From: Parietaria judaica
Lineage: Eukaryota; Streptophyta; Magnoliopsida; Rosales; Urticaceae
Length of the DNA stretch: 64,000 nt
Assembly: GCA_954871525.1 (NCBI GenBank)
Contig: OX940862.1
Coordinates: 46,989,732 to 47,053,731, forward strand
Direction of reading: 5' to 3'
How positions within the stretch are numbered: the stretch's first letter is position 1; every line of letters begins with the position of its first letter. The notes under the pieces are model-generated. The model did not search any database. It had not been told where the DNA came from and was given only the letters and a program-made list of their open reading frames with translations. The position numbers and the translations under genes are program-made. Of the stretch, positions 4,593 through 60,250 are shown piece after piece.

Positions 4593-4727
4593 TGTTTGAA
4601 ATCGTTGGTATCAAGCCGATTTCTTTACCACGATAATAGCCTCCGGGCCGTCCCGGTAACATTTAAAAATTCATTTTAAAGCGGAAATCTTGTTATCGGA
4701 CCGACGACACGGATATCGGGTAACAAC
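4593..4727 (-). mobile_element. CL1 LTR copy B, distal (U5) end
   Basis: These are the last ~135 bp of the minus-strand CL1 LTR, beginning TGTTTGAAATC on the plus strand. The sequence continues at 16,023 once the Tat-a element and one TSD copy (ACAAC) are removed. It aligns with 44,851-44,985 of the solo LTR. Confidence 0.9.
4723..4727. repeat. TSD of Tat-a, left copy (ACAAC)
   Basis: The 5-bp duplication ACAAC occurs here and again at 16,018-16,022, bracketing the Tat-a element. Confidence 0.9.
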
Positions 4728-5582
4728 TGTTGATGTACAAATTCGTCATTATTTAATATGACATAAAGTGCTAAGGTTGTGAATTAATTAAATTTACAAA
4801 CCATGATAAAAGGCTTTAAAGAAATAAACTGGTATTCGTAAAAGCCCATGTGAGAAGCCCAATGAGATTCTCAATCAGACTAAAAACCAACGGATACAGG
4901 CTACTCGGCCCAATGAATTCTAAGGCCCAAATCCATTCGACAGCAGTCCAGACAGACGAGGGTAGAGTCGTCACATTCTCTACCCGGCATCCCATTTCAA
5001 ATTCAGACGGAAGACCAAGAGCACGGAGTCAAGCCTCCAACAGGCATAATTCAAACACGACGACGAGAACGAAGTCATGGGACACGTGTAGCAAGGTCGT
5101 CCATTCAACCCGGTCAGCACGGAGTGAAGACCCCTCGATTCCTGGAAGTCCAACGGGAAGAATTGAAGCCTATAAATGCCAAGCTCAAGTTCAGATCAAC
5201 ACACACGCATACTTACAACCTCGATAGAATACACTGAAGAGATTCTACCCGGCATTCTTGTCCATTTGAGATCTTATTGTATTCTTTCTCCCCTTCTCTA
5301 TTCCTTTCTATTCTTAGACGTGATCTAGCTGCCTGTAGCTATCCGTCCATGTTCATTGTCGCAATAAACTAACAGAGGAAGTAGTCAACTACCGCTTTGG
5401 GACGAACCTCTATAAAAAACTCCTCGTCTCATTTATATCGCTTATATACGTATATATATATATCGTGAGTGAATCGTGAACTTGCAACGCGAGAGATCGA
5501 ATTCCACCAAATTGTTCCATTCAAAAATATCATACGCTCACAAGTCACACTTGACTGATTGAGGTGGGAAACCACGTCAATA
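4728..5582 (+). repeat. Tat-a 5-prime LTR
   Basis: 855 bp, starting TGTTGATG. The end reads TCAATA where the 3-prime LTR reads TCAACA, so the terminal CA has mutated. A TATA box (TATAAATG) is at 5171-5178. A short TA microsatellite lies near 5450-5465 and is longer in the 3-prime LTR. Confidence 0.93.
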
Positions 5583-5583
5583 G

Positions 5584-5603
5584 TTTGGCGCCGTCTGTGG
5601 GAA
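5584..5603 (+). promoter_or_regulatory. Tat-a primer-binding site
   Basis: TTTGGCGCCGTCTGTGGGAA follows the LTR directly. TGGCGCC plus a GTGGG tail is the usual primer-site form in plant Tat elements. I did not assign the exact tRNA. Confidence 0.75.
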
Positions 5604-5646
5604 ATTGATCTCGCTAACTTCTAAAAGCTCAAAGCACTCTGCAAAC

Positions 5647-6790
5647 ATGAATCGTGAACGAGTCTGAGGTGAACAACCCAGACCCAAACACGGAATCGAG
5701 CAACCTACAGTCTCAGCTAGAGGCTAGCGCTGCTGAGAATCGAGAGTTGTGCCAGCGACTCGAATCTCTGGAAGCCAACCAAGCTCGAAATAAGCGTCGT
5801 CAGAATGCTAACCGGACTAATCCGGGACAAAGCTTTGGGTATCAAGGCCGGACAGGGCTCGACCAGGTTCAAAAAAACCATGGTCAAAAACCTTGCAGCA
5901 AGAGAGAGGAGAGCCCCTTAGAACTTTCATGACCAGGTTCAAAAAAACCATGGTCAAAATCAACGGGATCAGTGACGAAACTGCCATAGCCGCTCTCACG
6001 GTTGGATTATCGTACGACTCGAAGCTCAAAACGGACATCGTCGTGAATGTTACGACTCCATCAGATCATCCAATTGGATCAGACATGACAAAGAACTCGA
6101 AGCCATGTGAAGGATACATGGATCTCAACCCGTCCACCAGCAGAATACCGGACCACCCGGGCAGCAGCCGCCGCCTAGAGCCGGAAATAACAACAACCCT
6201 TTCAGGGGACAAAGGAATTCCCCCCCAATCCAGAAGCACCCAATCCAAGCCCAGAATCCGAGGGCTAATTATGGACCGAACCCACAAAACCCATACGTTT
6301 TCAACGTAAATTCGGAAGCCGCGGAGTTCAAAGAACAGATCGAAGCGGAAGAAACCCCTGGAGAAGTGCTGGTCAGCTCGAGGGACTTCCCACCGTACAA
6401 CAACGAAGGTTTCCCGAAGCACGACCAAAAAGCGTGGTGTAACTTCCAGAAGGTGTTCGGGCATCATCCAAAAAATTGTATGGTACACCGTGCCCGCCTA
6501 GCGGAAAAATACATCAACGGCGAGTTGGGAGAAATAGACTTCGGCAACGAGCTGAAAGGTGGGGAATCAACCAAGCAAAGCCTTCCCCAAAATCAACCTC
6601 CGGCCAGAGAAGAGACGAGCAGCAGAGAACGCCGCGCGAAAACATACAGCCTAGGAAAAGTGGACGGGTACACATGCTCGAAGAACCGGACGAGCAAACG
6701 TACGAAGAAACGGAGAATTTTGGAGAGCAGCTCAGCGACATCCCCGAGCCCATCGGTAGAATCTACACGATTGTGGGAGGTTCCTAACTG
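5647..6790 (+). pseudogene. gag: Tat-a gag, rearranged and frameshifted
   Basis: Gag coats the RNA in the virus-like particle. Coding similarity is split over three frames. An N-terminal piece (5654-5932) contains a coiled-coil-like stretch. A middle piece (5893-6309) carries PLRTFMTRF and the following segment typical of Tat gag. A C-terminal piece (6366-6806) has a zinc-knuckle-like CNFQKVFGHHPKNC near 6440-6480. The region expected before the middle piece is largely missing. At that join a 29-bp sequence starting GACCAGGTTC is present twice, at 5861-5889 and 5931-5959, which suggests a template switch. No complete protein can be made. Confidence 0.8.
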
Positions 6791-6906
6791 CACGGTAACT
6801 CAGTAAACTCCATCAAGGCCCATCAGAGAAGGCTCAAGGCCGGACCGGTGATCATACCGAGGCAAGAGCCGGACTTCGAGATCTCGTTCAAAGATAGTTA
6901 GGCGGC

Positions 6907-7390
6907 CACACTGATTGGTCCACACGACGACGCGCTGGTCGTCACACTCCTAGTTGCCTCGTATACGATGGACAGGATCCTAATCGATAACGGGAGCTCA
7001 GTCGACGTGATCTTCCTGGAGCCGCTGCTAAAGCTGGGAGTGGAAGAGACAGAGATTAACAGAGAGGCCATCCCGCTAACCGGCTTCGATGGAGGAACCA
7101 TCAACGCGGTTGGCACGGTGCGGCTGTCCATCGCAGCAGCGGGGGTCGGAAAGACCAAAAACTTCCTAGTATTGGACTGCCCGTGAGTCTACAACATGAT
7201 ACTAGGAAGACCCCGGTTGCACATGATGAAAGCCGTACCGTCAACCTACCATCAACTAATACGCTTCCCGAATAGGGCAGGAAAAATCGTTGAAATCAAG
7301 GGAAATAAAAAACAATCCAGAATTTGCTACATGAGCGCGTTCCGGAACATCCAGGCCGCTAAGGCCGGGAACGAGCAATCTACCGCATAG
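6907..7390 (+). pseudogene. Tat-a aspartic protease region of pol
   Basis: Retroviral-type aspartic protease that processes Gag-Pol. The catalytic motif appears as LIDNGSSVDVI at about 6983-7015, fitting the D-S/N-G-S/T pattern. The flap-side LGRPRLHMM is at about 7200-7225. One in-frame TGA (7184-7186) interrupts the domain, and a TAG at 7388-7390 separates it from the RT segment in the same frame. All protease and RT segments share one reading frame, so this was a continuous polyprotein. Confidence 0.88.
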
Positions 7391-7396
7391 CAGCTA

Positions 7397-8940
7397 ATGG
7401 CGGTAGATGAAAAAGAGGACGACGGACAGGAAAGGGTCACCGATACGGACGGACCTAACCTGGAAATGACAGTCCAGGTCCAAATCGATCCCGACAACCC
7501 GGACCACTGGGTAGGAATCGGAAAAGGACTAGACAATGACGTCAGAAAAAATCTCCTCAAATTCCTAACCAAAAACCGGGACTGTTTTGCTTGGTCTCAC
7601 AAGGATATGCCCGGAATAAACCCAAGCATTACAACCCACCGCCTAAATGTGGATCCGAGCTACAAGCCGGTGAAACAAAAAAGGCAAAAGCTAGGTCCGG
7701 ATAGGGCCCAAGCTGTGAATGAAGAAGTCACGAAACTGCTGCAGACCGGATCCATCAGGGAATTCAAATACCCGGACTGGTTAGCAAATACAGTAGTCGT
7801 GAAGAAGAAAAATGGGAAGGCTAGAGTCTGCATCGACTTTACCGACCTGAACAAAGCTTGTCCCAAAGACAGTTTCCCAATGCCCCATATCGACCGTCTA
7901 GTCGAAGCAACATGCGTGCACGAACTACTGTCGTTCATGGACGCATTCTCGAGATACAACCAGATCCTAATGCACCCCGAGGACCAAGAAAAAACGGCAT
8001 TCATAACCGATAGAGGAATATACTGCTACAAAGTTATGCCCTTCGGATTGAAAAACGCCGGAGCCACATATCAGAGATTAGTCAACCAGATGTTCGCCAA
8101 ACAACTCGGTAAAACTATGGAAGTCTACATCGACGACATGTTGGTAAATTCCTCCCAAGCAACGGATCACGTTTCCCACCTAGAAGACTGCTTCGCCATA
8201 CTACGAAAGTATTAAATGAAGCTCAACCCGACAAAATGCACCTTTGGAGTAACTTCAGGAAAATTCCTAGGTTATCTGGTCACACAGCGAGGTATAGAAG
8301 CCAATCCCGACCAGATAAATGCCCTCCAGAACATGCCCTCCCCAAGGACTGTTCGAGAGACGCAAAGGCTGACTGGGAGAATCGCCGCTCTTAACCGGTT
8401 CATATCAAGAGCTACGGACAAGTGTTTACCCTTCTACAAGCTATTGAAAGGTAACAAAAAGTTCGAATGGACCGAAGAGTGCGAAGAGGCCTTCCAAAAG
8501 CTGAAAAGGTACCTCTCCACCCCACCAATACTTACCGGACCAATCTTGGGAGAGCCATTGTTTTTATACCTGGCTGTCTCACCATCGGCGGTGAGCGGAG
8601 TAATCGTGAGAGAGGACCGCGTAGAGCAAAAGCCGATCTTCTACATCAGCAAATCTTTGGAAGATGCTGAAACCAGATACCCGGCAATCGAAAAACTCGC
8701 ACTGGCAATGATAACCGCAGCGAGGAAGCTTCGGCCTTATTTCCGATCCCATACCATCATGGTAATGACTACCCAACCTTTGAGAATTATCCTCCATAGC
8801 CCGAATCAATCGGGAAGGCTCACGAAATGGGCCGTCGAGCTAAGTGAATTCGACATAGAATACAAGATTCGAACCTGTGCAAAATCACAAGTATTGGCTG
8901 ACTTTCTCATCGAATTACCAGCCGACGATTCAAAAGAGGG
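7397..8940 (+). pseudogene. pol: Tat-a reverse transcriptase and first RNase H
   Basis: RVT_1-type reverse transcriptase. Visible landmarks are the DWLANTVVVKKKNG entry, RVCIDFTDLN, SFMDAFSRYNQI (first catalytic D), FGLKNAGATYQ and the YIDD catalytic box at about 8125-8140. A TAA at 8213-8215 stops translation just after the palm. The thumb/connection follows, then the first RNase H (about 8530-8930). The first RNase H appears to have lost its leading catalytic aspartate: LYLAVSPSAVSG stands where an aspartate is usual. This is reported for Tat elements, where the second RNase H is thought to take over. Confidence 0.92.
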
Positions 8941-8954
8941 CCAAGAGGACGGGG

Positions 8955-9330
8955 AATGGAAACTCGAAGTCGACGGCGCGTCAAACCAAGGCGGATCCGG
9001 GATCGGAATTCGTTTGATATCCCCCACGGGAGAAGTGTTGGAACAATCGTTTTGATTGAAATTCCACGCGATAAACAATGAGACCGAGTACGAGGCCCTC
9101 ATCGCCGGCCTCAAACTAGCAAAAGCCGTGGGAGCCCGGAAAGTAAGGGCCCACTCCGACTCAAAACTAGTTACCAGTCAGATCAGTGGCGAATACGCTA
9201 CCCAAGATGACAGAATGGAAAAATACCTCACGGTAGTAAAGGGCTTAATTCAACAATTCGAACACGCCGAAATAGTCCAAATACCAAGGAGTGAAACGCG
9301 TCAGCAGACGCATTGGCCGGTTTAGCTTCG
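8955..9330 (+). pseudogene. Tat-a second (archaeal-type) RNase H
   Basis: RVT_3-like RNase H. Its expected acidic residues are visible: D in LEVDGASNQGG (about 8968), E in ETEYEAL, D in HSDSKL, and D in the SADALA segment that appears only after a frameshift. A TGA at 9053-9055 interrupts it, probably a former CGA since related elements have arginine there. A one-base loss in the A-run near 9293-9297 shifts the frame before the last catalytic D. A tandem second RNase H is diagnostic of the Tat lineage. Confidence 0.88.
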
Positions 9331-10671
9331 ACTTTGGACACTGAGGTCAAAAGGATAATCCCGGTCGAAACAATAGACGAACCCAGTGTAACCCGCGAAG
9401 TTTGCAATATCCGAATGGAAGAGGATGATTGGAGGACCCCAATCATTAACTACATCCTAACCGGAGCCAAACCCCGAGATAAGCAAAAACCCAGGAAACT
9501 AAGGATCCAAAGCGCTAGATTTTGCCTGATCGGGGAAAAATTGTACAAACGTAGCTATACCGGACCCTACCTAAGGTGCCTAGGAAAGACCGAGGCTCTA
9601 ATAGTACTTCACGAAATCCATGACGGAGAATGCGGCAACTATTCGGGAGGAAGATCTTTAGCAAACAAAGCAAAAAGGCAAGGCTTTTTCTGGGCAACTA
9701 TGTTAGCGGACAGCGAAACCTATGCCAAAAGGTGCGACAAATGCCAGAGACACTCCCCGTCCATACATAGACCAGCAGAATAACTCTCATCAGTCTCAGT
9801 CCCGTACCCGTTCATGAAATGGTCCATGGACATAGTAGGACCTTTCCCCCCGGCCCCGGCCGGAAAGAGGTTTCTACTCGTCGTAACCGACTACTTCTCA
9901 AAATGAGTGGAGGCAGAATCGTACGCAAACATTAAAGATGTTGATGTAGAAAATTTCCTATGGAAGAACATCATCAGTAGATTCGGCCTCCCAAAAGAGA
10001 TAATAGCTGATAATGGACCACAGTTCATTTCGACGAGATTCCAAAACTTCTGCATAAACTGGAAAATATCCTTGAACACGTCCACTCCGAGATATCCTCA
10101 AGGAAATGGTCAAGCCGAAGTAGCTAACCGGGTAATAGTGGACGGAATCAAGAGACTCCTAGACACTAAAAAGGGACGATGGGCAGACGAGCTCGTAGGA
10201 GTCCTTTGGTCCTACAGAACCACCCCGCGTAGGGCCACCGGGGAAACCCCTTTCTCAATGGTACACGGCACTGAGGCCGTGATACCAGCAGAGATAGAGA
10301 CACCCAGCCTTCGAAGGGAACTCGCCCCTTCGAACGCAGAAATCAATGACGAAATGAGGGAAGACCAGCTCGACTACATCGACGAAAGACGAGAACAAGC
10401 TTTGATAAGAATTGCCAACTATCAAAACTCGATAGCTAGGTACTATAATTCAAAAGTCAAACGTCGAAAATTCATAGTGGGAGAGTTGGTCCTCAGAAAA
10501 GTTTTCCAAAATACCGCCGAGCTGAATGCGGGCAAGCTCGGGGCTAATTGGGAAGGACCTTACATCGTCACCGAAGTAGTAAATCCCGGAGTATACCGGC
10601 TAGCCACTCTGGATGGAACAAGAGTCCTCCACAGCTGGAATTCCATGCACTTAAGGAAATACTACGCCTAA
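9331..10671 (+). pseudogene. Tat-a integrase
   Basis: Integrase inserts the DNA copy into chromosomes. The zinc domain is at about 9605-9760: HEIH with a CDKCQ pair, but the second expected histidine appears as tyrosine (CGNYSGG). The catalytic core shows D in WSMDIVGPF (about 9825), D in IADNGPQF (about 10,010) and E in NGQAEVANR (about 10,110). The C-terminal part ends [14 protein letters not shown] before TAA at 10,669-10,671. TAA at 9781-9783 and TGA at 9904-9906 (expected W) break the frame. The core-to-end segment 9907-10,671 is open. Confidence 0.92.
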
Positions 10672-10696
10672 CCCGACCTACCCGGTCTCCCCTGAA

Positions 10697-10734
10697 CTAC
10701 GTAATGACTTGATCCCCAAATTTTGGGTACGTAG
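10697..10734 (+). promoter_or_regulatory. Post-pol hairpin of Tat elements
   Basis: CTACGTA (10,697-10,703) and TACGTAG (10,728-10,734) are inverted, with CCC and GGG able to extend pairing inside. The same arrangement follows integrase in Tat-b at 48,014-48,052, although most flanking sequence differs. Possible roles are RNA stability or 3-prime-end function; neither is shown. Confidence 0.5.
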
Positions 10735-10858
10735 GAAGCCCATCCTAAACAATGGGCGCAGTCTCAATCCAAACCCAAAACCAAATAGGCCCGAGAACTA
10801 CGAATTGCAAGACTCAATAGAGCCAACCTAAAAGGAAACATGTCCCGAAATTCCCGTC

Positions 10859-11100
10859 AAGGCGACAAGCCTACCCGGGTAACAGACCCATCACCTAAGG
10901 TAACAAACCTAGCCGGGTAACAGACCCATCACATAAGGTAACAAACCTACCCGGGTAACAGACCCATCACATAGGGCAACAAGCCTATCCGGTTAACCAA
11001 CCCGTCGCATAAGGCAACAAGCCTATCCGGGTAACAAACCCACTACAATGGTTGATAAACCTAACCGGGTATCCAAACCGTCCCTTAAGGCGACAAGCCT
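10859..11100. repeat. 38-bp minisatellite in the Tat-a 3-prime region
   Basis: Six complete 38-bp units and part of a seventh begin exactly every 38 bases from 10,859. Each carries CAAGCCTA or CAAACCTA and then CCGGGTAAC with ACCC. Early units differ at only a few bases; later ones are more diverged. The array lies between pol and the antisense gene. Confidence 0.92.
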
Positions 11101-11557
11101 AATCCTTTTGAAAAAACATGTAATTATATATGTCTGGCATTTACAAATGTGTTTTTCAGAAAACACAACTTGCGGGATATTATGATGAACGGGCAGAACA
11201 GGCTAGACGAGAAGTATCAAAGGAGCACAGACCAAAAGGTACCCGTACATTTTTTATACTTAGCAAATTTCAAATTTTCGACCTTTTTATTATCCGAGTA
11301 CACGATAGGACACTCGGAACCTCAAATAGGAAGGTTAATATAGAAAAGTACGATTAGGAAAATAACTTAAAAATACAGACAAGTAGAATATGGCGAGAAA
11401 TAAAGAGCATAATATAAGAACAAAATAGCAAAGGCCCTAACCACGGGCATATCCAAACCTTACAAAAAAAAAAGGGTTCAAGTCGCCGTAGACTTGCCCA
11501 TAGAAATTGTCTTGGCCTTAGGCCTTATTAACTAAAACAAAAAAAATGGGGGACACT
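11101..11557. other. Tat-a spacer between minisatellite and antisense gene
   Basis: AT-rich sequence with no gene I can support. Two overlapping open frames (11,130-11,357 and 11,149-11,343) look like chance. The last ~60 bp would be the 3-prime untranslated region of the antisense gene. Confidence 0.5.
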
Positions 11558-12589
11558 CTATGTGTCAACCCCAGGCACCTCTATGACCTCTCGGTCCTCC
11601 TTCTCCTTCTCCTCTTCTCCTTCTTCACCGGCCTGGCCTCCACGCTCGGTCGGCTCCTCAGTGGCGGTCTCCTCGGCGACGACGGGCTCGTTCAGGGTTA
11701 GCTTTTCGAGGGCGATCTCCTCGGTATCAGCAATGGCAGGCAAGATGGGCTCATCGAGGGTGGTCTCCCCGGCCACAGGATCTTCAACAACGGGCTCGAT
11801 GGCGGGATCTTCAGAGGCGGAATCCTTGGCGGACGACTGCTCACACCGGAGGCTCAAATCTACAAGAGGAACACCGGTCAGCTCGGCATCTGGAGACAGA
11901 GCTGGAGACCCTATCAGCGGTGCCGGAACCACATCCAAGAGAGCTTGGTAACGAGTAGCGTTGCCTTCTAGGACCTCCTTCTCGGCCTCAAAATCTTGGA
12001 CGTTGCTGTCAATGATGTCTTGGATTAGCTCGAGGCAACCTTCGGCTTGATCCAAGAAACTATTTTCGGCGGCCGTACCTTTGTACCATGCGATTAGCGC
12101 GTCCCTTTCCTCCACCTTTCGGCGGTATCGGGCACGGACAGCCTTCTTCTTGGCCTCACGGTCGGCGGATTGTTGCTGTGCTTCAGCCAGCTCAGCAGCA
12201 AGGCGCTGCACGTCCTCCTTCAGGGCTAAGGCCTCCTCCTAGTTCTTCTTGGGCAATTCCTCAGCCCGTCCCTTAGCCGCGTCAGAAGCCAGCATCTGCC
12301 TGGCGGCCACCTCGCTCGCACTCTGAGCCTCCCCGATCGTCCGGGTAGCGTTTGCCAGCTTCTCCCGGAGGTCGACAACAGTATTCCCGAGCCCCTTGAT
12401 CCTAGCATCACAGGCGGCGACCTTCTTGCCCATGACCACGATCTGCTCCGCCTTCACCCGAATGCCATCCACAGCATCAGCTAGCTCTCTCTCCTTCAGC
12501 GCAAGCTTCTCGGAAGCTTGCGCGCCCTTCCTAGCCTCGTATAACTGATCCTCGTAATCGAGGACCATGTCATTGATAGAGGCGACGAG

Positions 12590-12661
12590 CTAAACGTCCA
12601 AAAACCAAAGTTAGAAAAAATCAAAGAATAAAATAGAAACCTGAAAGACAATGATGCTTAC
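12590..12661 (-). other. Intron 3 of the antisense gene
   Basis: GTAAG...GTTTAG, 72 bp. It lies between codons, joining exon 3 (ending VAAATTL) to the coiled-coil exon. Confidence 0.78.
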
Positions 12662-13476
12662 CAAAGTTGTAGCCGCAGCCACGTCCTTGTAAGGCCTCTT
12701 CTCGGCAATACTTCTGGGGACCCTGCCGACCCCGCCGTTCGTTATCTGCCGTAGAAGACCGGCCGCCACCTTAGGCGCCTTGTGGAGACCCTTGTCCCCC
12801 ATCCAAGTGCACCCCGCCTTCCGGGAGATCATCTTCTCCCTGGGCTGCCCCTCGACTGCCGGGGGAATCAATCCCGTCTCCCTCGCTTCACCTCGGGAGG
12901 CCTCCTTAGGGCGCTCGCTCTCCCGAGAAACCCCCTTGCCTTTCTCCAAGGCCCTCGCACCTCCTTTCGGGACCATGTCCCTCCTCACCACCTCCTTCGG
13001 GGCCGAATCCCCCTTCGCCTTCTTCCGGACTCCGGAATCCTCTCCTTCGCGTGGCCTCTTCGCGGCCGCCTCCGAGCCCGTCCTCGATAGAACTTCGTCC
13101 TGAGAAGGACGGATCACGCCCTTGGAAGGACGAGCAGGAGCAGAAGGAGGGACAACCTCCCTCTCCGAAGGCTTCGCCAAAGGCGTAGCCTCCGGGGTGC
13201 TGTCCCCGTCGTCGGAGAGTTCGATAACATCATTCTTCTTGATCGCCCCAGGGGCGACCTCAGCAAGAGACTCCCGAGCACGAGTCTCCTCGTTCCTCAT
13301 ACTCGTCTCCTGACGAGCAGTCTTAGCTGGCGCAGACGCGCCAGGTCCCCTCTTCTCAACCCGCCTGCTCGTCTCCTGACGAGCAGCTCCAGCCGAGGCC
13401 GAACCCCCGGTCTGAACCTCCTGCCTCCGCCTTTGGTGAAGACTCTGACCCTTCGGACGTAGCGCGTCCATATCCT

Positions 13477-13555
13477 CTGCACGTCAAAAATCCACACTTA
13501 GAAAAAAATAAAAAAGATACAAAACAAAACCAAACCACATGTTTAGAAATCATAC
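13477..13555 (-). other. Intron 2 of the antisense gene
   Basis: GTATG...GTGCAG, 79 bp, T-rich. It splits a glutamate codon after its first base. Confidence 0.78.
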
Positions 13556-13717
13556 CCGGAAAGTCGTCCTCGTCCGGCTCACACCAAAGCCCAGTAGCCT
13601 CGAACCTCTCCTACGTGAAATTCGACCACAGCTCCGGGCCAAAAGGAAAAAGCCTCTTCTTCAAAGCCTTCCACTCCTCAGTAATTGGGCGAGACTTAGG
13701 CCTCTCAGTATCCTCGA

Positions 13718-13805
13718 CTGAATTAGAAAGGAAACAAAATTTAGCAAACACACAAAAATAGCCGGATAGAAAAAAATTAGAAAAAAGCCCAACCCGGAAC
13801 CTCAC
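13718..13805 (-). other. Intron 1 of the antisense gene
   Basis: GTGAG...TTCAG on the minus strand, 88 bp, T-rich before the acceptor. Splicing joins the first base of a valine codon to the next exon. Confidence 0.75.
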
Positions 13806-14656
13806 CTATCTCGTGGACCCATTCGTTCCTATAGCTCGGCCAAGAACCAACTGTTTCCTGACCGGCCATGAAGAAGAAATACTTGTGGGTCCAAGCACTC
13901 TCCTTCTTGGGAAGACCGGTTATGATCTCCCCTTCCTTGACGGACAGGAAAAACCTACCCTTGGCCTGACCATTCGCCTTGATGACCAAGCCCGTCAACA
14001 GGCCCCAGATTTTGAGTGAATACAAACACTCGTGGGACCGGACATGCAAGGCCATCAAGATCCAGATAGAATTCGGGCTAAGCTGCCCGATAGAAACCCC
14101 TAGGTAACTAAGATACCTTAAGATAAGCTCAGGAATAGGAAATATAAGCCCCCCGGACTCAAAAAACCTCTGGTATACACAGACCCAGCCGTCCGAATTC
14201 TGCTCGTCGGCATGTTCGTCCGGCCCCGGCAACCTAAGTTCTATCGACTGGGGAATCTTATATTCTACCCGGATCCTAACCAAATCTTTAGGTGTCAGGA
14301 CTGACTTAGGAGAATCTGTAGTCAGAAACTTCGTCTGCCATTTCGAGACCGTCTTCTTAGGACCCATTCTATAATTATCTTAAAAAAATACCGAGGATAA
14401 TCTAGACGAGCACAAAAACCCAGAAAAACCACCCAAAGATCGACCAAAAAATAAACCCGAAAAAATCTCCTAACAAATCCTAAGGAAATAAAAGGCAGGC
14501 AGAAACTAGAACCTTAACTCCCTACGAGTTTGACGAAGAAGACGGCGAAGACAGACCTCAGAGCACCTCCGATGGCGATTCGCAGAGTTTATCTCTCTAA
14601 ATCTCAAAGCTTTTCTCTCTCTAAAAATTCGAAAATGATATTCGAATGCGAAATAA

Positions 14657-14670
14657 AGTATATATATAGA
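14657..14670 (-). promoter_or_regulatory. Candidate TATA box of the antisense gene
   Basis: TCTATATATATACT on the minus strand, about 290 bp upstream of the antisense ATG. The sequence between is purine-rich with TCTC/GAGA tracts, as in many plant 5-prime leaders. It is inferred from position only. Confidence 0.4.
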
Positions 14671-15131
14671 GGAGAGAGAAATAGGTTACCTTCGAAAGAC
14701 GTGCGACGGGCTGAAGCTGAAGAGACGTGCCCATTTAATGCGAATCACTCAAGTATTTATACTCGAAAATTGTCGCTGATCCTACGGTTAAGGTTTCCTC
14801 GAAAAACGCAACAAACCTGATCCTACGGTTGAGATCAGCGAGCTATCCGGTGACACGTCAGCACGACAGCTGTGTCAGGAGAATGTGAAGAGTTTATTCC
14901 CTTCGAACTTCGCAAAATGGGACACGTGTTATAACTGTTCCCGCCCAAAATTTGAAGCGACAGTTACAGCTTCAAGACCCTATCCGTCCATCTTATCTCG
15001 AAATTATCCAAAATCCTGTCCGGATTATGCAGATTTGCGGCAAAAGTCACAAATTTAATAAATCCTATCCGGCACGAATTTTACATGATTTCATCGAGTA
15101 AATACTATAAAATTTACTTCGTATTTTTTAT
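14671..15131. other. Tat-a region between antisense promoter and 3-prime LTR
   Basis: No gene seen. It would hold upstream sequence of the antisense gene. CCTACGGTT occurs twice (near 14,780 and 14,823), and GACACGTGT at 14,921-14,929 contains an ACGT core like plant G-box elements. Confidence 0.4.
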
Positions 15132-15140
15132 AGTAGGGGG
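15132..15140 (+). promoter_or_regulatory. Tat-a polypurine tract
   Basis: AGTAGGGGG lies five bases before the 3-prime LTR and is the likely plus-strand primer. Tat-b has a matching G-run before its 3-prime LTR at 60,647. Confidence 0.75.
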
Positions 15141-15145
15141 CTAAC

Positions 15146-15869
15146 TGTTGATTTACAAATTCGTTATTATTTAATATGACATAAAGTGTTAAGGTTGTGA
15201 ATTAATTAAATTTACAAACCATGATAAAAGGCTTTAAAGAAATAAACTGGTATCTGTAAAAGCCCATGTGAAAAGCCCAATGAGATTCTCAATCAGACTA
15301 AAAACCAACGGATACAGGCTACTCGACCCAATGAGTTCTAAGGCCCAAATCCATTCGACAGCAGTCCAGAAAGACGAGGGTAGAGTCGTCACATTCTCTA
15401 CCCGACATCCCATTTCAAATTCATACGGAAGACTAGGAGCATAGAGTCAAGCCTCCAACGGGCATAATTCAAACACGACGACGAGAACAAAGTCATGGGA
15501 CACGTGTAGCAAGGTCGTCCATTCAACCCGGTCAGCACGGAGTGAAGACCCCTTGATTCTTGGAAGTCCAACGGGAAGAATTGAAGCCTATAAATGCCAA
15601 GCTCAAGTTCAGATCAACACACACCCATACTTACAACCTCGAGAGAATACACTGAAGACATTCTACCCGGCATTCTTGTCCATTTGAGATCTTATTGTAT
15701 TCTTTCTCCCCTTCTCTATTCCTTTTTATTCTTAGACATAATCTAGCTGCCTGTAGCTACCCGTCCATGTTCATTGTCGCAAATAAACTAACAGAGGAAG
15801 TAGTCAACTACCGCTTTGGGACGAACCTCTATAAAAAACTCCTCGTTTCATTTATATCGCTTATATACG

Positions 15870-15900
<31 letters not shown>

Positions 15901-16017
15901 TGAGTGAATCGTGAGCTTGCAACGCGAGAGATCGAATTCCACCAAATTGTTCCATTCAAAAATATCATACGCTCACAAGTCACACTTGACTGATTGAGGT
16001 GGGAAACCACGTCAACA
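15146..16017 (+). repeat. Tat-a 3-prime LTR
   Basis: 872 bp, TGTTGATT...GTCAACA. It matches 4728-5582 apart from about 30 scattered substitutions and a longer TA microsatellite (15,871-15,898). The TATA box is at 15,589-15,595. TSD ACAAC follows at 16,018-16,022. Confidence 0.95.
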
Positions 16018-20140: not shown

Positions 20141-21745
20141 TGATAGGGCCTAATTATTCTAATAAATTAAGGATATTTCTTGATATATTACTTTGATTTA
20201 TTTATTAGAATGGAGCTATTGTGTGGTGTTTATGTGTGCAGGTGGCGAATGTGAAAATAAATCAACAGCAAGGGCCAGATTGCAAAGGACTGTATTGTAA
20301 AAATGGAAAGCATACAATTCCAAGGACCAAAGTTGCAAAAAGAACGAACTTTGAGACTAGCTCATAATCTCCCACGGGCTGCTTCATTTGCACACTCACC
20401 AGCCCCACAAAAAGACGAAAAGCATTTATCAGACTCAAAATAGGAGAGAGCGCCAAAGCTCGAAGTCCCTGATGATTGGAAATAACTCGCCGTTGCTGCT
20501 CTTCGAAGGTCCGTCATCGCCGCTGATCCCTGAGCTTCGCCGCTGTTCGCCGGAGATACGCCGTTGTTCGGGGATAGTCCGCCGTTATTGCAGTTCCGCC
20601 ACCGCCGCTGCTCGTAGGAATTCCGTCGAGGCGGTGCTATGCTGCGATAGGCCAGGCTCAGCAAACAAAGCCCAATAAGAAAGAGAAATACGATTTAAGT
20701 CACGGTATTCTCATAACAGTTAGAGATTTTTATGGAAACATTTATTTTTCTTATTGTGAGAATAAAATCGTGGTTTAGGTCTGTTAGGGTTAGGAGGAGG
20801 ATATAAATAGCTTGATTATTATCAGAAAAAGGAGAGTCGATTTGGGGAGCTGAGAACAGAGTGGAGTATTTTCTTCGTTTGCAGCCATGAATACGATCGG
20901 CTAAAGTCTGTAATTGGTTTGAGTTTCTGACATTATGATTCAATAAATCTGTGAGGCATTATTTTGTTCAATTATCAATCCGTGAATATCGATCTCGTTA
21001 TCTAGAATTATATTATGTTATCAACGATATCTCTTCTCCGATTTATATCAATTTCAATTGTCGGATTACGTTAATTTATCAATTGTTTCATTGTGATCGG
21101 TGATTGTGTATTAATCGTTAGCGTGATATTATTATAGATTTCTTATAAGTACATCGACTGTATTTTTGAAGTTTATATACCGTTAATTAATTGACTCTTC
21201 GTACTTGTCTTTTGATTGTTGAACGCACGTTTGGTTAGTTTGCTATGCGGTTAGTGAAATAGCGAAACAGGTAAAGGAGGTCGGCTGAATTAAATATTAC
21301 CGCGGTGTTTTATTGTTCAGTTTTATTGAAGTGTTCTAAATATTAATGCTGCTTAGATTTTAAATTCAGTTACGTTTGATTGGAATATCTCTGAGTTAGG
21401 TTTGATTTAATTGCGTTTCAATTGAATTAAATAATCTTAAGGAATACGTTAATCGGTAAGATATTCTGTAGGTTGAAGAACAAATTTATGTCGATGATCA
21501 GATGAGTTGAATCATTAGTGAAAGTTACTCATGCCAATTGTTTCTCATATTTTTTTCTCACATTTTTCTCTCTTTTTATTTACTTATTCTCTCAAACCAA
21601 AAATCCCCCTTTTTACTTCGCTTTTATTATTATTGCAACGTTATTAGAAAACTCTTCGTGGGATCGACCCGTACTTACACTACTACATAAGTTTTGCAGG
21701 TTACGGTTTTTATTAGTAATTTGGGTTGCATACGACAGCACACCA
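20141..21745 (+). repeat. Athila-d 5-prime LTR
   Basis: 1605 bp, TGATAGGG...CACACCA. The TATA box (ATATAAATAG) is at 20,801-20,810. A CGCCG-rich stretch spans about 20,488-20,640. Open frames inside recur identically in the other LTR and are not genes. Confidence 0.96.
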
Positions 21746-21750
21746 AATTT

Positions 21751-21768
21751 TGGCGCCGTTGCCGGGGA
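21751..21768 (+). promoter_or_regulatory. Athila-d primer-binding site (tRNA-Asp type)
   Basis: TGGCGCCGTTGCCGGGGA, five bases after the LTR, matches the tRNA-Asp-complementary site typical of Athila elements. Confidence 0.9.
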
Positions 21769-21793
21769 GTTTTTCTAATATTCTTTGCAGTTG

Positions 21794-24339
21794 ATGGTTA
21801 GCACTAGATCTTCAAGCCAGAACGAGTTGCGGAATAATCAAGAAGCTGAGAGCCGATTACAGCAACCAAGCGGAGATAGTCAAAGAGTCGATCAAGCTAC
21901 CGAGCGACAAAGTCACGAAGCTCAAGAGACAATGGCCGATAATCGAACTTTGAGAGAGCTTGCTGCTCCAACATCAAGCCAACAACCCTTATGAATTACG
22001 TTCCCTGCCTTAGATGCTTCCACTACATTTGAATTAAAATCTGGACTAATACATTTACTCCCTACTTTTCATGGTCTTGCAGGTGACGATCCGCACAAAC
22101 ACTTAAAGGAATTACATGTTGTTTGCACCAGCATGAAACCACCTGGAATATTCGAGGAGCAAATTATGCTACGAGCTTTCCCATTTTCTTTGAAAGATAT
22201 GGCGAAAGATTGGCTTTACTACTTGCCTTCAGGAACCGTCACCACATGGAGCGAGATGAGAAGGTTATTCCTTGAGAAATATTTTCCTGCTGCCAGAGCC
22301 GCAAACATGAGAAAAGAAATATGCGGGATCCGTCAGCTCAACAACGAGTCGTTGCACGAGTATTGGGAGCGATTCAAGAAATTGTGCGCAAGCTGCCCCC
22401 ATCATCAAATCAGTGAACCGTTGCTCATTCAATATTTTTACGAAGGACTTTTGTTTGCTGATCGGAGCATGATTGACGCTGCCAGTGGAGGAGTTTTAGT
22501 GGATAAAACCCCAGAAGACGCTAGGAAACTCATTGCCAACAGCGCTGCAAATTCACAGCAGTTCGGAAATCGAGTTGACCATCCGGTCAAACAAGCGAAT
22601 GAGGTAAATGTTTCTTCGTTAGAACAACAAATTACTGGATTAACCGCACTTGTTCGACAAATGGCTGTAGGAAATTTGCAGGCAGTAAAGGCATGCGGAG
22701 TATGCTTAAACGAAGGACATCCAACTGACCAGTGCCCCACAATTCAAGGATCAGCAGAGCAAGCAAATGCGGTCGGTAATTTTCCGAACCAACAGAGACG
22801 ATACGATCCATACTCCAACACATACAATCCTGGTTGGAGAGATCATCCGAACTTCAGCTATGGGAACACCCAAGTGTTGAGTCGACCAAATGGACAAGAT
22901 CATCACCAACCGTCAAGCTCCAACAGGTCATTAGAAGATATCGTTAAGTCTTTAGCTTCTAATACTTTGCAATTTCAGCAGGAAACAAAGGCTAGCATTC
23001 AAAATCTGGAAGGTCAAATGAGTCAAATGGCATCTGCGATAACTCGATTGGAAGCAAAAATTCAGAGAAACTACCGTCTCAAACGGTCGTGAACCCAAAG
23101 GAATTTGTGAATGCTAATCATCTGAGAAGTGGAAAGAAGATTCTGACGGTCGAAGAGGAAACAAGAACACCGCCAGTTGAGAACGAGGATACGAGCAAGG
23201 AGGAGGACAAAATCTCTGAGAAGCCACCTCCACCGATCTACGAACCGGTAGCCCCTTTCCCTGAAGCTTTAAACGAATCGAGAAAATTTGAAAATAATGC
23301 AGAACTTTTTGAAACTTTTCGTAAATGTGAGGTAAATATTCCATTACTCGATGCTATTAAACAAGTACCTCGTTATGCTAAATTTTTAAAAGAGTTGTGT
23401 ACAGTGAAAAGAAAGCAAAAATTGAAGGGAATGGCTAAATTAAAGGTGAGCCAAAATGTTTCAGCAATCTTGCAGAATAGTTTGCCAAAAAAATGCAAGG
23501 ATCCAGGTATATTTACGATACCGTGCACAATCGGTAATTGTAAAATTGAGAAAGCGATGGCCGATTTAGGTGCTTCAATTAATGTCATGCCATTTTCACT
23601 TTTTGAATCGTTAAAAATTGGAACTTTGATGAAAAGCGATGTGGTAATCCAACTAGCGGATCTTTCCAACACGTATCCGAAAGGCAAAGTTGAAGATGTT
23701 CTTGTGCAGGTACATGGGCTTATCTTTCCCGCTGATTTTTATGTGCTTGATATGGAGAACGATGATAATAATTCACGTGTGCTTCTTGGGAGGCCATTCT
23801 TGAAAACGGCAAAAACAAAAATAGATGTCGACACGGGTACTTTAACAATGGAATCAAACGGTGAAGTAGTTAAATTTGATATTTACGGTGACATGATTTC
23901 AAAGCTTGATAATCAAATTTATGCTACTTATGCTATTGATGTTTTACCGCATGATGTTGAGTTGAGCAGGGATGATAAGTTAGAGGTTTCGACGCGAGAA
24001 CCTCCTGAAGACGAAATTGACTCACATGTCATTGAGAATACACAGATTAACAAAGAAGACACGAAGATGGTGCATGAAGAAATAAAAATGGCGAAAAAGT
24101 TTGAAATTGAGCAAGAAGTCTTGCTATATCATTCTAAACGCAGATTTTTGCTAGGTAAGTCACGTTCTCAATGGTTAGGACCCTTTGTGATTACTAACGT
24201 ATTTGGTAATGGTGCAGTAGAGATTCAAAGTCTCACGACCTTAAAGAAATTCAAAGTGAATGAGCATAGGCTCAAACCATCTGAGAACGGATTCAAAAAC
24301 GGAGTGGAAGGCACAATTGCGGACGATAAAATAAAGTGA
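21794..24339 (+). pseudogene. gag: Athila-d gag-protease fused to integrase C-terminus
   Basis: The frame starts MVSTRSSSQ at 21,794. A TGA at 21,992-21,994 interrupts it. The gag core follows, with HLLPTFHGLAGDDPHKHL and then MARDW-like and EYWERFKKLC segments (to ~22,560), and a CGVCLNEGHPTDQCP zinc knuckle near 22,695-22,740. A one-base shift near 23,070 moves the frame; afterwards KLPSQTVVNPKEF and HLRSGKK are typical Athila. Protease follows, with DLGASINVMP as its active site (~23,560-23,590) and LLGRPFLKT (~23,785). At about 24,030-24,060 the frame passes straight into the integrase C-terminal region (QEVLLYHSKRRF, LGPFVITNVF, EHRLKPSE), ending TGA at 24,339. The join is in frame. The stop and shift make it non-coding now. 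Confidence 0.88.
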
Positions 24340-25600
24340 GGCCACTCCAACATTGCGTCGGGCTAACGACACTAAACAAATGCGCTTCTTGGGAGGCAAC
24401 CCAAAAGAGTTTGTTCTTTCTTTCATCGTTCTTTTCAATTTCATTTAAGTTTATTTTTTATTATTTCTTTCATATTTCTTTACATTGAGGGCAATGTCTA
24501 GTTTTAAGTGTGGGGGAAGGGTTATCTTTAACAAATTTCTCCATGCTTATTCACTTTGTTCCTCGTGCACTAGTATTTTTATTATTATTTCAATTTCTTT
24601 CTTAAAAAAAAAACAGATTTTTGCCTCTTGAAATTGATGTTCACAAGTTTTTCGTCGAGATTACCATGAAAACGAGGCTGACCACAATTTGTTGCATTGA
24701 TTGTTATTTTGGGACCAATGAGTAGCATTTTTCTCGCAGTGACTTATGATTAGATTGAGTAAACAAAAGCCGTGAGTTTCTTATAAGCCTTTGATTGACA
24801 CATTTATATCAATCATTACTTTCCCATGAGTGATTCATCCATAGACTTAATCTTCTATAACTTGCATTGATTCTCTTCGAGATTACAAAGGCATTGCTCT
24901 CATAGTCTCTCTATTCCACTAGTGCGATAGTTTACCCATGTTATTATTTGTTCTAAGTCAAAAAAAAAAAAAGTTTCCAATTAAGAAGATCTAGTGGAGT
25001 GAGTTTATTCATTGTTTGCATTCGCCTATTATGAAGTGCTAAAAAAAAACAAAAAAAACAAAACAAAACAAAAGAAAAAAAAAAACAAAAACAAAAAAAA
25101 AACAAAAGAAAAGAAAAGAAAAGAAAAAAAGCACAAAAGGTATTTCATTTGCACTCTCCACTAGTTATAGTATTTTAGCCATCTTTATTGTACATTTTCC
25201 CTTATCATCATTAGTAGTAGTAGTTTTATTATTTATCGAAAACTAGTGGAAGAAAGAGACTTAAGGGTAGATGATCACCGTGAAGGAGAATGAGAAGATA
25301 TGCAAGCCTATGGTAAGATGTTTCTATGAGATTGAAAATGAGCGATACACTACCCTTATCAAACACTTGAGTGAAGTGAGGTTATCCACGAGGTTTTACT
25401 TAATACGAAGTCCTTTGATCATTTACAATGATATCTCTACTTAGAGGTCACTTTTTGACGAAATATGCTATCATATTGTATCCGAGTTTCTAATTAGTGG
25501 TTTGTCTTGATTGAATTGCTATGATCATCATTTTCTGTTTTAAAAGAAAAAAAACCAATACTTTATTCGAGGACGAACAAAAGCTAAGTGTGGGGGAATT
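24340..25600 (+). other. Athila-d 3-prime untranslated region
   Basis: No gene. GCTTCTTGGGAGGCAACCC near 24,384-24,402 is a common Athila landmark. TAAGTGTGGGGGAA occurs at 24,505-24,518 and again as the purine tract at 25,585-25,598. A low-complexity A/C/G run spans about 25,039-25,130. Confidence 0.75.
25585..25598 (+). promoter_or_regulatory. Athila-d polypurine tract
   Basis: TAAGTGTGGGGGAA ends two bases before the 3-prime LTR. An identical 14-bp copy lies 1080 bp upstream. Confidence 0.8.
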
Positions 25601-27205
25601 TGATAGGGCCTAATTATTCTAATAAATTAAGGATATTTCTTGATATATTACTTTGATTTATTTATTAGAATGGAGCTATTGTGTGGTGTTTATGTGTGCA
25701 GGTGGCGAATGTGAAAATAAATCAACAGCAAGGGCCAGATTGCAAAGGACTGTATTGTAAAAATGGAAAGCATACAATTCCAAGGACCAAAGTTGCAAAA
25801 AGAACGAACTTTGAGACTAGCTCATAATCTCCCACGGGCTGCTTCATTTGCACACTCACCAGCCCCACAAAAAGACGAAAAGCATTTATCAGACTCAAAA
25901 TAGGAGAGAGCGCCAAAGCTCGAAGTCCCTGATGATTGGAAATAACTCGCCGTTGCTGCTCTTCGAAGGTCCGTCATCGCCGCTGATCCCTGAGCTTCGC
26001 CGCTGTTCGCCGGAGATACGCCGTTGTTCGGGGATAGTCCGCCGTTATTGCAGTTCCGCCACCGCCGCTGCTCGTAGGAATTCCGTCGAGGCGGTGCTAT
26101 GCTGCGATAGGCCAGGCTCAGCAAACAAAGCCCAATAAGAAAGAGAAATACGATTTAAGTCACGGTATTCTCATAACAGTTAGAGATTTTTATGGAAACA
26201 TTTATTTTTCTTATTGTGAGAATAAAATCGTGGTTTAGGTCTGTTAGGGTTAGGAGGAGGATATAAATAGCTTGATTATTATCAGAAAAAGGAGAGTCGA
26301 TTTGGGGAGCTGAGAACAGAGTGGAGTATTTTCTTCGTTTGCAGCCATGAATACGATCGGCTAAAGTCTGTAATTGGTTTGAGTTTCTGACATTATGATT
26401 CAATAAATCTGTGAGGCATTATTTTGTTCAATTATCAATCCGTGAATATCGATCTCGTTATCTAGAATTATATTATGTTATCAACGATATCTCTTCTCCG
26501 ATTTATATCAATTTCAATTGTCGGATTACGTTAATTTATCAATTGTTTCATTGTGATCGGTGATTGTGTATTAATCGTTAGCGTGATATTATTATAGATT
26601 TCTTATAAGTACATCGACTGTATTTTTGAAGTTTATATACCGTTAATTAATTGACTCGTCGTACTTGTCTTTTGATTGTTGAACGCACGTTTGGTTAGTT
26701 TGCTACGCGGTTAGTGAAATAGCGAAACAGGTAAAGGAGGTCGGCTGAATTAAATATTACCGCGGTGTTTTATTGTTCAGTTTCATTGAAGTGTTCTAAA
26801 TATTAATGCTGCTTAGATTTTAAATTCAGTTACGTTTGATTGGATTATCTCTGAGTTAGGTTTGATTTAATTGCGTTTCAATTGAATTAAATAATCTTAA
26901 GGAATACGTTAATCGGTAAGATATTCTGTAGGTTGAAGAACAAATTTATGTCGATGATCAGATGAGTTGAATCATTAGTGAAAGTTACTCATGCTAATTG
27001 TTTTTCATATTATTTTCTCACATTTTTCTCTCTTTTTATTTACTTATTCTCTCAAACCAAAAATCCCCCTTTTTACTTCGCTTTTATTATTATTGCAACG
27101 TTATTAGAAAACTCTTCGTGAGATCGACCCGTACTTACACTACTACATAAGTTTTGCAGGTTACGGTTTTTATTAGTAATTTGGGTTGCATACGACAGCA
27201 CACCA
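25601..27205 (+). repeat. Athila-d 3-prime LTR
   Basis: 1605 bp, identical to the 5-prime LTR over the first 1057 bp. All 8 differences fall between positions 21,198 and 21,661 of the 5-prime copy (26,658-27,121 here). The TATA box is at 26,261-26,270. TSD ACTGG follows. Confidence 0.96.
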
Positions 27206-27210
27206 ACTGG

Positions 27211-50734: not shown

Positions 50735-50795
<61 letters not shown>

Positions 50796-57421: not shown

Positions 57422-57467
<46 letters not shown>

Positions 57468-57964: not shown

Positions 57965-60250
57965 CGATCCTCGTTTAAAGCTTCTCTGAGGACTTCTTCA
58001 CAACAAGACAAGAGGCAATGATGACTTCGTTGCGTGCCTCCTGGAGCTTGGCAGAAGTAGTAACGAGGTGGCTACGAACTTTTTCGAGATTCTATTGGAA
58101 AATTCCCCTCTGGGCGACATCAACTTGGAGGCCAGATGCCTCCTCGGCAAGAGTCCCTAAATGCTGGTGTTCCTCATGGAGTTGACCTCGTAGGCCTATC
58201 TTGGTTTGCCTGAGGTGCTCGATCATCATCTTGGCGCCAAAGACCTTTTCTTCGGCCATCTTGAGCCGGCCCGTCAGCTCGACGAGCTCCTTGGTATTCT
58301 CGCTTAGGTCGGCTTCGAGCCCCTTTACGAGGTCCCCAGGCCACGACGTGGCCGCCTTGGCATGTTCCGATTTCAGCCTTCCTAGATCATTCTCGTATGA
58401 GAGGACCGTCTCGTTCATATACGTCTGGAAATGAGAACGACGAACAAATTTCTACAGGCATATAGTCCTAGAAAAGTCAAACAATGAGAACCCGAAAGGT
58501 AAAATTACTTACCCGAACGCACGCTTGGGCCATGCGCTCATACTACTTGCCGTGGGCGAGCTGCAGGGGGTCCAGAAGGCGGTTGAGATACGTCGAATTG
58601 GCAATGTATCAAGAAGAGGCACGCACGGAGTCCACGAGGGACCTTTAAGCGGATAACTTGACCTTGACGTATTCTACGTTCTTCTCGCCTGAGACGGAAT
58701 ACCTGCTGATCCCGTCGGCTACCATCGGCGCTTTCCTTTTCTCATTGGAGTGTCTGCACGCTACAGGGTACCCGTGGGGGTTCGACCTCAGACGAGGTGC
58801 GGATCGCTCTGGGACCACCATTGTCTTCTTAGCAGGCACGGGAGGGACCTCGGATCGCTTAGCGGAGCGGCTACGTATCTCAGCACGCGCTGGCGCGACG
58901 TCCGGCGCGTCAGACATTTCCACCTCCCCCTCAGTAGTAAATTCAACGCATGGCTTCACAGTACCCGACAGCTCACCCTCAATCTTGACAAAGTGAGCGG
59001 ACTGCGCCTCCCGAGCCTTATCAACAATAGTCTCGAGAGAGGCATCCTCGGGGTCTTATCGCTGGGAGAGGAGAACACCTCCACGACAGGAAATGATGAG
59101 TCACCTCGCTGGATTGGGGTATCACTCGTCCCGCTCGACGACTTCATGGACTTTTCTAGACCTGCGTAACACGCCGGCATATACTTCAAATTCAAGAACA
59201 AGGTGAAATCACCTCCCAGCTATCTTTCAACACTTTGTTTAGAGGCATACCTGACACGTTTAACAAAACTTCTGCGACCAAATGTCCCTTCCCAGTGTAG
59301 TATTTCTAGTACCCCGAGTTCTCGATCCTATCAACCGGGAAATTGGCCCAGCGGAGCCCGTCTTTGGGGATAAGCTTCTTTTTGATGGCCCGAAACCTCG
59401 AATCCTCCTCGAGATAAGAAGCCCTACCTAGAAAGCAACAGAAAACAAAACAAGGTCATACATTGGTTCTTATACCTTGCAATATATAATAATAAGCCTG
59501 ATAACAGAGGCCCGAAGCCCATCACCGGTGGAGTTCCATTCGGGCGACCTCACTGCCCCGGCCTGATTATCCGAGAACAAAAATTATCTCTCTATCCAGC
59601 CACCCCGAACATTTGGAGTACCGTGGAGGATCTTCCCCCTCCTCCTGTCGAGATAGTGTTCCCGGATGCTTTCCCCGAGCCCTTCTGATGGTATAGACGA
59701 GCTAGATTGTCGTTGGTGAGGACCACCTCGTGCTCTCTTGCCACGACACCCTGGGGCACCAAGTTGTGGTAGGCATTTAGGCCAAGTTGACCCAAGGCCA
59801 GGTGCAGGTGACGGAGATACTCCACAATGACCTCCGGGAAAGGCAGCTCAATCCCGGCCTCAAGAAAAGCCTCATAAGCGACTGTCGACCCATCATTCGC
59901 CACGAATGGGTGATCCTTCCTCTCAGGGGCTTCAAGTTCGATGAATTCTTAAAAGTTGTAGACGGCGCAAAGTTCCCTCACATAATCGGGAGTGAGCACC
60001 GAAGACGGAGGAAATTTGAGCAACCAAGGCGCTTTGGAAGAAGAAGTGATTATCACGATATCAGAAAAAATGAGAAGAAAAAAATGCAGAGAAGAAAGAA
60101 GGAAAGAGATGGTTCAGAGGCAATTGGAGAAAACTGCGAACGAAATACAAAGGTTATAAAGGAACCTCACCTCAACACGCCTCCCACTTCTTCTCTCATG
60201 ATCTTCGATGGTGTACAAGGAAATGATGGTGACCGCATGGTTAGTGAGTT
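57965..60250 (-). pseudogene. Tat-b antisense gene, N-terminal and middle parts
   Basis: On the minus strand, 59,592-59,930 reads PERKDHPFVANDGSTVAYEA then FPEVIVEYLRHLHLALGQLG, the same Transposase_28-like domain as Tat-a exon 1. 58,956-59,190 and 58,645-58,959 give charged middle segments with a TACGCAG acceptor-like site near 59,160. 58,092-58,418 is a coiled coil (MNETVLSYENDLGRL...). Stops and shifts occur. With 48,709-49,107 this is one gene split by CL2, in the same order as in Tat-a. Confidence 0.65.

What the first reader, a model, noticed from the sequence alone, without database searches (positions are those of the whole stretch)
11558..14670. A four-exon spliced gene lies antisense inside Tat-a
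Seen: three short GT...AG introns (88, 79, 72 bp) whose removal keeps a single frame through 2571 bp, with phases 1, 1 and 0 all agreeing. That agreement is unlikely by chance. Both interruptions are TAG codons that one C-to-T change would restore to CAG. A TATA-like site lies ~290 bp upstream. Known: extra ORFs occur in plant Tat elements, and Transposase_28 is annotated in plant gypsy-type repeats. Inference: the gene has its own promoter and nuclear splicing, so it makes an mRNA separate from the genomic RNA, which cannot be spliced at these sites.
Basis: partly seen in the sequence, partly recalled or inferred. Interest (0 to 1): 0.75.

Follow-up and report, generated by a model that had tools for sequence, protein, structure and literature searches.

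The report
Spliced antisense gene inside plant retrotransposon
A plant jumping element of the Retand type seems to carry, on its back strand, a gene split into four pieces by three short introns; back-strand genes are a known hallmark of these elements, but we found no report of introns in them.

Summary
On the minus strand of Tat-a (4728-16014) four exons (14367-13806, 13717-13556, 13476-12662, 12589-11558) join into one 856-codon frame with two in-frame TAG codons; the strand's other frames hold 33 and 45 stops. Frame joining alone is weak: 17 of 60, 9 of 30 and 5 of 22 GT-AG pairs, the proposed ones included, do it. Intron quality is stronger: T 52-54% against 16-27% in exons; a post-hoc filter passes 5 of 666 pairs, all at these introns. 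A diverged relative (28-39% identity by exon) lies antisense in another, decayed Tat-type element at 60.0-57.97 kb. It supports intron 3 well, intron 1 roughly, intron 2 only by compatibility. An antisense TRP28 gene there is the published hallmark of Retand elements (PMC11963269); both copies score below Pfam's cut-off for it. The multi-exon structure looks new: the word intron is absent from that survey and from a 2020 review, though key original papers are not held. Transcription, splicing and function could not be tested. This copy is decayed.

The parts
4728..5579 (+). 5' LTR of Tat-a (TG...CA), preceded by ACAAC target duplication 4723-4727; TGGCGCC, primer-binding-site-like, follows
15146..16014 (+). 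3' LTR of Tat-a, followed by ACAAC; K2P 0.034 to the 5' LTR over 854 sites
5821..6306 (+). gag fragment (Retrotrans_gag, E 0.0015, 19.2 bits, below cut-off 24.1)
7391..9052 (+). reverse transcriptase (RVT_1 2e-24) and RNase H (RT_RNaseH_2 1.9e-24), two ORFs of one frame split by a stop
9056..9322 (+). additional RNase H-like domain (RVT_3, 9.2e-12) between RNase H and integrase, the Retand/Ogre position
   Evidence: position rule from PMC6317226 passages
9295..10668 (+). integrase (H2C2 2.2e-7; rve 3.2e-9), two ORFs
10859..11102 (+). 38-bp tandem repeat array, 6.4 copies, between pol and the antisense gene
14754..14761 (-). TATAAATA, candidate core promoter of the antisense gene (394 bp before the ATG); alternative TATATATATA at 14668-14659
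   Evidence: function not tested
13806..14367 (-). exon 1 (562 nt): N-terminus with TRP28-like region, aa 62-105
13718..13805 (-). intron 1, 88 nt, phase 1, 52% T, CTAAA before the acceptor
13556..13717 (-). exon 2 (162 nt); TAG at 13613-13611; no in-frame ATG
13477..13555 (-). intron 2, 79 nt, phase 1, 54% T, CTAAG before the acceptor
12662..13476 (-). exon 3 (815 nt): charged region with bipartite NLS-like cluster at aa 381-394
12590..12661 (-). intron 3, 72 nt, phase 0, 54% T, CTAAC before the acceptor
11558..12589 (-). exon 4 (1032 nt): coiled-coil-like part and acidic tail; TAG at 12241-12239; final stop 11560-11558
57965..60032 (-). diverged, decayed relative of the antisense gene in a second Tat-type element ('B'), cut off at about 57964 by another element's LTR
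58425..58512 (-). intron 3 equivalent in B: 88 nt, GTAAGT...TTTCCAG, phase 0, recovered by a focused spliced alignment at Tat-a residue 515 (Tat-a's own: 513)
   Evidence: not recovered without the splice-signal bonus

Best explanation
The feature is the antisense accessory gene that Retand (Tat) Ty3/gypsy elements carry between pol and the 3' LTR, here resolved as a four-exon gene with three short plant-type introns. Shown by sequence: one open frame across four exons, three T-rich GT-AG gaps with intron signals, a TRP28-like N-terminus, a basic NLS-like middle, a coiled-coil-like part and an acidic tail; and a diverged relative that fits at least intron 3. Inferred: RNA polymerase II starts at an internal TATA box, the pre-mRNA is spliced and exported like a host mRNA, and a nuclear, probably DNA- or chromatin-associated oligomer is made that regulates or assists the element, loosely as the antisense proteins of HTLV do. 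The introns survive retrotransposition because the sense genomic RNA carries them only as their complements. This copy probably inserted with the gene intact and has decayed since.
For: Frame and introns. Openness, 2 stops of 856 against 33 and 45. Intron signals: 5 of 666 GT-AG pairs (60-110 nt) pass on this strand, the three introns and two neighbouring acceptors; 0 of 311 on the opposite strand; 1 of 981 and 0 of 852 on the two strands of 5584-11557; none in 300 shuffles; CTAAN 21-23 nt (script's count) before all three acceptors. Relative B: exon 1 scores 135 against a shuffle maximum of 54, exon 2 scores 60 against 43, 0 of 1000 shuffles each. Intron 3 of B: GTAAGT donor, phase 0, within 2 residues. 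Codon-position identity in 156 aligned codons of exons 1+2: 75, 97 and 61 at positions 1, 2 and 3. Tat clade: RVT_3 between RNase H and integrase. Intact at insertion: 1.23 nonsense changes expected from LTR divergence, 2 seen. Precedents: antisense TRP28 in all but two of 63 Retand clusters (PMC11963269, section 11 part 1); Grande gene23 with own promoter and nuclear product (PMC7264820, passages).
Against: No RNA was available. PF04195 is below its cut-off in both copies. In B exon 3 (14 of 1000 shuffles reach the score in one frame, 976 of 1000 in the other) and exon 4 (43 of 1000) are weakly similar. Unguided spliced alignments placed spurious introns; intron 3 of B came back only in a focused run with a bonus for splice-like signals, beside one extra gap, and not in the run without the bonus. 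B's putative intron 1 is 48 nt or has a lost donor; none of 440 GT-AG pairs in B passes the filter, and B's introns lack CTAAN near the acceptor. The filter was set after seeing Tat-a. Exons 3 and 4 have ATGs near their starts, so separate ORFs are not excluded by lack of starts. No homologues in searched databases, which by their descriptions are mostly microbial and viral. The same genome could not be searched.
Confidence: 0.8

Rival explanations
1. Several separate, unspliced antisense ORFs (a TRP28 ORF, a middle ORF and a coiled-coil ORF), as ORF-length surveys would list them; the T-rich gaps are spacers.
For: The survey counts antisense ORFs separately, 104, of which 57 carry TRP28 (PMC11963269, section 11 part 1). 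Frame joining by some GT-AG pair is easy. Exon 3's open frame has an ATG at 13471 and exon 4's at 12568, close to their starts.
Against: Exon 2 has no in-frame ATG yet is conserved in B, in a frame other than exon 1's; each of three gaps carries donor, CTAAN, pyrimidine-rich stretch and acceptor.
Confidence: 0.1
2. The antisense transcript works as RNA (dsRNA or siRNA control of the element), and coding is incidental.
For: Raised for this class of genes in PMC7264820 (passages).
Against: An 856-codon frame with 2 stops, lowest identity at codon position 3, and protein similarity between two diverged elements. An added RNA role is not excluded.
Confidence: 0.07
3. A one-off host gene fragment captured by Tat-a alone.
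For: Introns are what a host gene captured in antisense orientation would bring (inference).
Against: A diverged relative lies antisense in another Tat-type element, and such genes are lineage-wide (PMC11963269).
Confidence: 0.03

Closest known systems
Antisense TRP28 (PF04195) ORFs of Retand Ty3/gypsy elements (PMC11963269)
   Same: Position between pol and 3' LTR, antisense orientation, TRP28-like N-terminus; some clusters have Smc-like antisense ORFs and tandem repeats in that region
   Different: Described as ORFs of 600 bp or more; the word intron does not occur in the held text. Here one four-exon gene; PF04195 score is below cut-off
gene23 of maize Grande (PMC7264820 passages; original 2013 paper not held)
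   Same: Antisense accessory gene with reported own promoter and nuclear protein; an NLS-like cluster here
   Different: No sequence comparison could be made here; the word intron does not occur in the review
Spliced antisense genes of deltaretroviruses, HBZ and APH-2 (PMC10186651, passages)
   Same: Antisense to gag-pol, spliced, nuclear proteins
   Different: No homology claimed; those start in the 3' LTR, whereas here the candidate promoter is internal and three small introns lie inside the coding region
Ogre gag-pol intron (PMC6317226, passages)
   Same: An intron in a Tat-clade element

Membership tests
Retand lineage of Ty3/gypsy | aRH domain between RNase H and integrase (shared with Ogre) | tested here: met
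   RVT_3 E 9.2e-12 at 9056-9322, between RNase H (8216-9052) and integrase
Retand lineage of Ty3/gypsy | pol-3'LTR region of 2.9-6.6 kb with antisense ORF | tested here: met
   About 4.5 kb from 10671 to 15146, with the antisense gene (range)
Retand lineage of Ty3/gypsy | Placement in the Retand branch of a reverse transcriptase tree | not tested
   No reference reverse transcriptases were fetched
TRP28 (PF04195) proteins | Pfam gathering score 26.2 bits | tested here: not met
   16.2 bits (E 0.013) for exon 1 and 14.5 bits (E 0.044) for the B piece; 13.1 bits for the joined protein. Called TRP28-like only
Spliced gene | Processed mRNA joining the exons | not testable with these tools
   No RNA data
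Spliced gene | Intron positions shared with a diverged relative | tested here: inconclusive
   Intron 3 matched (phase 0, within 2 residues) in a focused, signal-weighted run only; intron 1 approximately; intron 2 only compatible

The most novel reading that the evidence does not exclude
The antisense TRP28 genes of Retand elements are in general multi-exon spliced genes, and the short TRP28 ORFs and separate Smc-like ORFs of the published survey are exons of one gene. An intron-bearing accessory gene would then have passed through an RNA intermediate since early flowering plants, by virtue of its antisense orientation, making Retand a plant parallel to retroviruses with spliced antisense regulators.
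Probability: 0.45. Interest if true: 0.65.

Novelty: new variant of a known kind. Interest (0 to 1): 0.5.

Why it matters
The function and origin of these antisense genes are called unknown in the 2020 review and the 2025 survey (passages), and the review asks for a look at antisense and spliced transcripts. A multi-exon model gives the full protein (TRP28-like head, NLS-like middle, coiled-coil-like part, acidic tail) instead of fragments. It speaks against capture from a processed mRNA (inference). It may also explain why ORF-length cut-offs miss the gene: Tat-a's exon-1 ORF from its ATG is 591 nt, 197 codons with the stop, under both the 600-bp and the 250-codon cut-offs used.

Tried and rejected
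Structure of exon 1: the single-sequence fold failed (mean pLDDT 31.6), so no fold search was made. Homologue searches in proteins, plasmids, viral contigs (reverse transcriptase) and prokaryote genome contigs (reverse transcriptase) found none; by their descriptions these collections are mostly microbial and viral, so this says little. The first frame-joining test used wrong anchors for introns 1 and 2 and was redone. A crude heptad scan gives a moderate coiled-coil signal over about aa 500-730; Pfam's weak LRS4 and HAUS6_N matches, both below cut-off, are not taken as families. A leader intron before the ATG (42% T, AG just before the ATG) was considered and left open. Checkpoint note 1 gives the second stop as codon 681; one search gives 630. 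Literature searches for introns in such genes; in the listings (some capped: 20 of 647, 10 of 12) I saw no paper reporting them. The 2013 Grande and 2012 extra-ORF papers are not held; the 2006 Retand paper was not looked up.

Full report
Setting. Tat-a is an 11.3-kb Ty3/gypsy element at 4728-16014: TG...CA LTRs, ACAAC target duplication, LTR divergence K2P 0.034 over 854 sites. Its sense strand holds gag, reverse transcriptase, RNase H, an additional RVT_3-type RNase H and integrase, broken into several ORFs. The aRH between RNase H and integrase places it in the Retand/Ogre part of the Tat clade as described in PMC6317226 (passages); no tree was built. Between pol and the 3' LTR lie a 38-bp tandem array and the antisense gene.

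The joined frame has 2 stops in 856 codons, the two other frames of the strand 33 and 45. The introns have 52-54% T, the exons 16-27%. Frame joining is not itself strong evidence: 17 of 60, 9 of 30 and 5 of 22 GT-AG pairs, the proposed ones included, do it. A filter on donor match, T content and pyrimidines before the acceptor, set after seeing the introns, passes 5 of 666 pairs on the gene strand (the three introns and two neighbouring acceptors), 0 of 311 on the opposite strand, 1 of 981 and 0 of 852 on the two strands of 5584-11557, and none in 300 shuffles that do not keep local composition. Each intron has a CTAAN motif 21-23 nt before its acceptor by the script's count; that this resembles a plant branch point is recalled knowledge.

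The relative. A tblastn of the joined protein found a second antisense copy in the window, about 60.03-57.97 kb, in an element B whose reverse transcriptase fragments are 36% and 62%, and integrase fragments 50%, identical to Tat-a's. Identity of the gene itself is 36% in 128 codons of exon 1, 39% in 28 of exon 2 and 28% in 105 of exon 4. Exons 1 and 2 are clearly homologous (scores 135 and 60, 0 of 1000 shuffles each); exon 3 (14 of 1000 in one frame, 976 of 1000 in the other) and exon 4 (43 of 1000) only weakly. Reading frames at the candidate junctions of B give phases 1, 1, 0 as in Tat-a, but these sites were picked by eye, and the 48-nt intron 1 so obtained is doubtful. A spliced alignment with a bonus for splice-like signals recovers all three introns on Tat-a itself (positive control). 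On B its focused run returned intron 3 (donor 58512, acceptor 58425, phase 0, residue 515 against 513) with one extra gap, and an intron-sized break near intron 1 with uncertain ends; unguided runs added spurious introns, and runs without the bonus did not return intron 3. None of 440 GT-AG pairs in B passes the Tat-a filter. So B supports intron 3 well, intron 1 in rough position, and intron 2 only by compatibility.

Selection and decay. In 156 aligned codons of exons 1 and 2, identity is 0.48, 0.62 and 0.39 at positions 1, 2 and 3, as under protein-level constraint. From the LTR divergence 43.3 changes and 1.23 nonsense changes are expected in the frame since insertion; 2 are seen. The simplest reading is that the gene was intact when this copy inserted.

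Separate ORFs? Exon 2 has no in-frame ATG, but the open frames of exons 3 and 4 have ATGs at 13471 and 12568, near their starts. Separate ORFs are therefore not excluded by lack of starts; exon 2 and the intron signals are what speak against them.

What is known. PMC11963269 (abstract, passages, first part of section 11) reports antisense TRP28 ORFs in all but two of 63 Retand clusters, predicts DNA binding, and counts 104 antisense ORFs, with TRP28 in ORFs under 600 nt in five table rows; the word intron does not occur in its held text. PMC7264820 (passages) reports own promoter and nuclear location for Grande gene23 and asks for a look at antisense and spliced transcripts; the word intron does not occur. 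PMC12786077 (passages) says plant LTR elements generally lack introns, naming Ogre and EVADE as exceptions. PMC10186651 (passages) describes spliced antisense genes with nuclear products in HTLV. Searches in which I saw no report of introns in these genes: in an open-licence library only; the original Grande and extra-ORF papers are not held.

Mechanism, marked. Shown: gene anatomy and candidate introns. Inferred: transcription from an internal TATA box (14761 or 14668), splicing, nuclear entry through the cluster at aa 381-394, oligomerisation through exon 4, and action on element DNA or chromatin. Antisense orientation explains how introns persist: the genomic RNA holds CT...AC, which the spliceosome does not use (established knowledge). 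Introns also argue that the gene was not captured from a processed mRNA (inference).

Verdict. Confirmed observation; interpretation partly supported; a new structural variant of a known accessory gene, with splicing still to be shown.

Noticed in passing
39649-63299: Decayed Tat-type element B; its LTRs are probably 39649-41344 and 61542-63299 (70% identical), though the LTRs of a neighbouring element (49108-51363, 55816-57964) are also about 67% like them. Its integrase lies in two pieces, 44552-44842 and 47602-47985, parted by other repeats.
   Followed up: partly
20141-27206: Gypsy-type element with 1.6-kb LTRs 99.5% identical; gag (21995-23089) and aspartyl protease (22996-24336) ORFs and no other ORF of 150 aa or more: perhaps a young non-autonomous element.
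   Followed up: no
28833-29674: LTR-like stretch 79% identical to the Tat-a 5' LTR, perhaps a solo LTR.
   Followed up: no
14368-14690: Leader of the antisense gene is 42% T with an AG just before the ATG: possible leader intron.
   Followed up: no
48711-48842: Minus-strand acidic stretch left of the element that cuts B, possibly the displaced tail of B's antisense gene.
   Followed up: no
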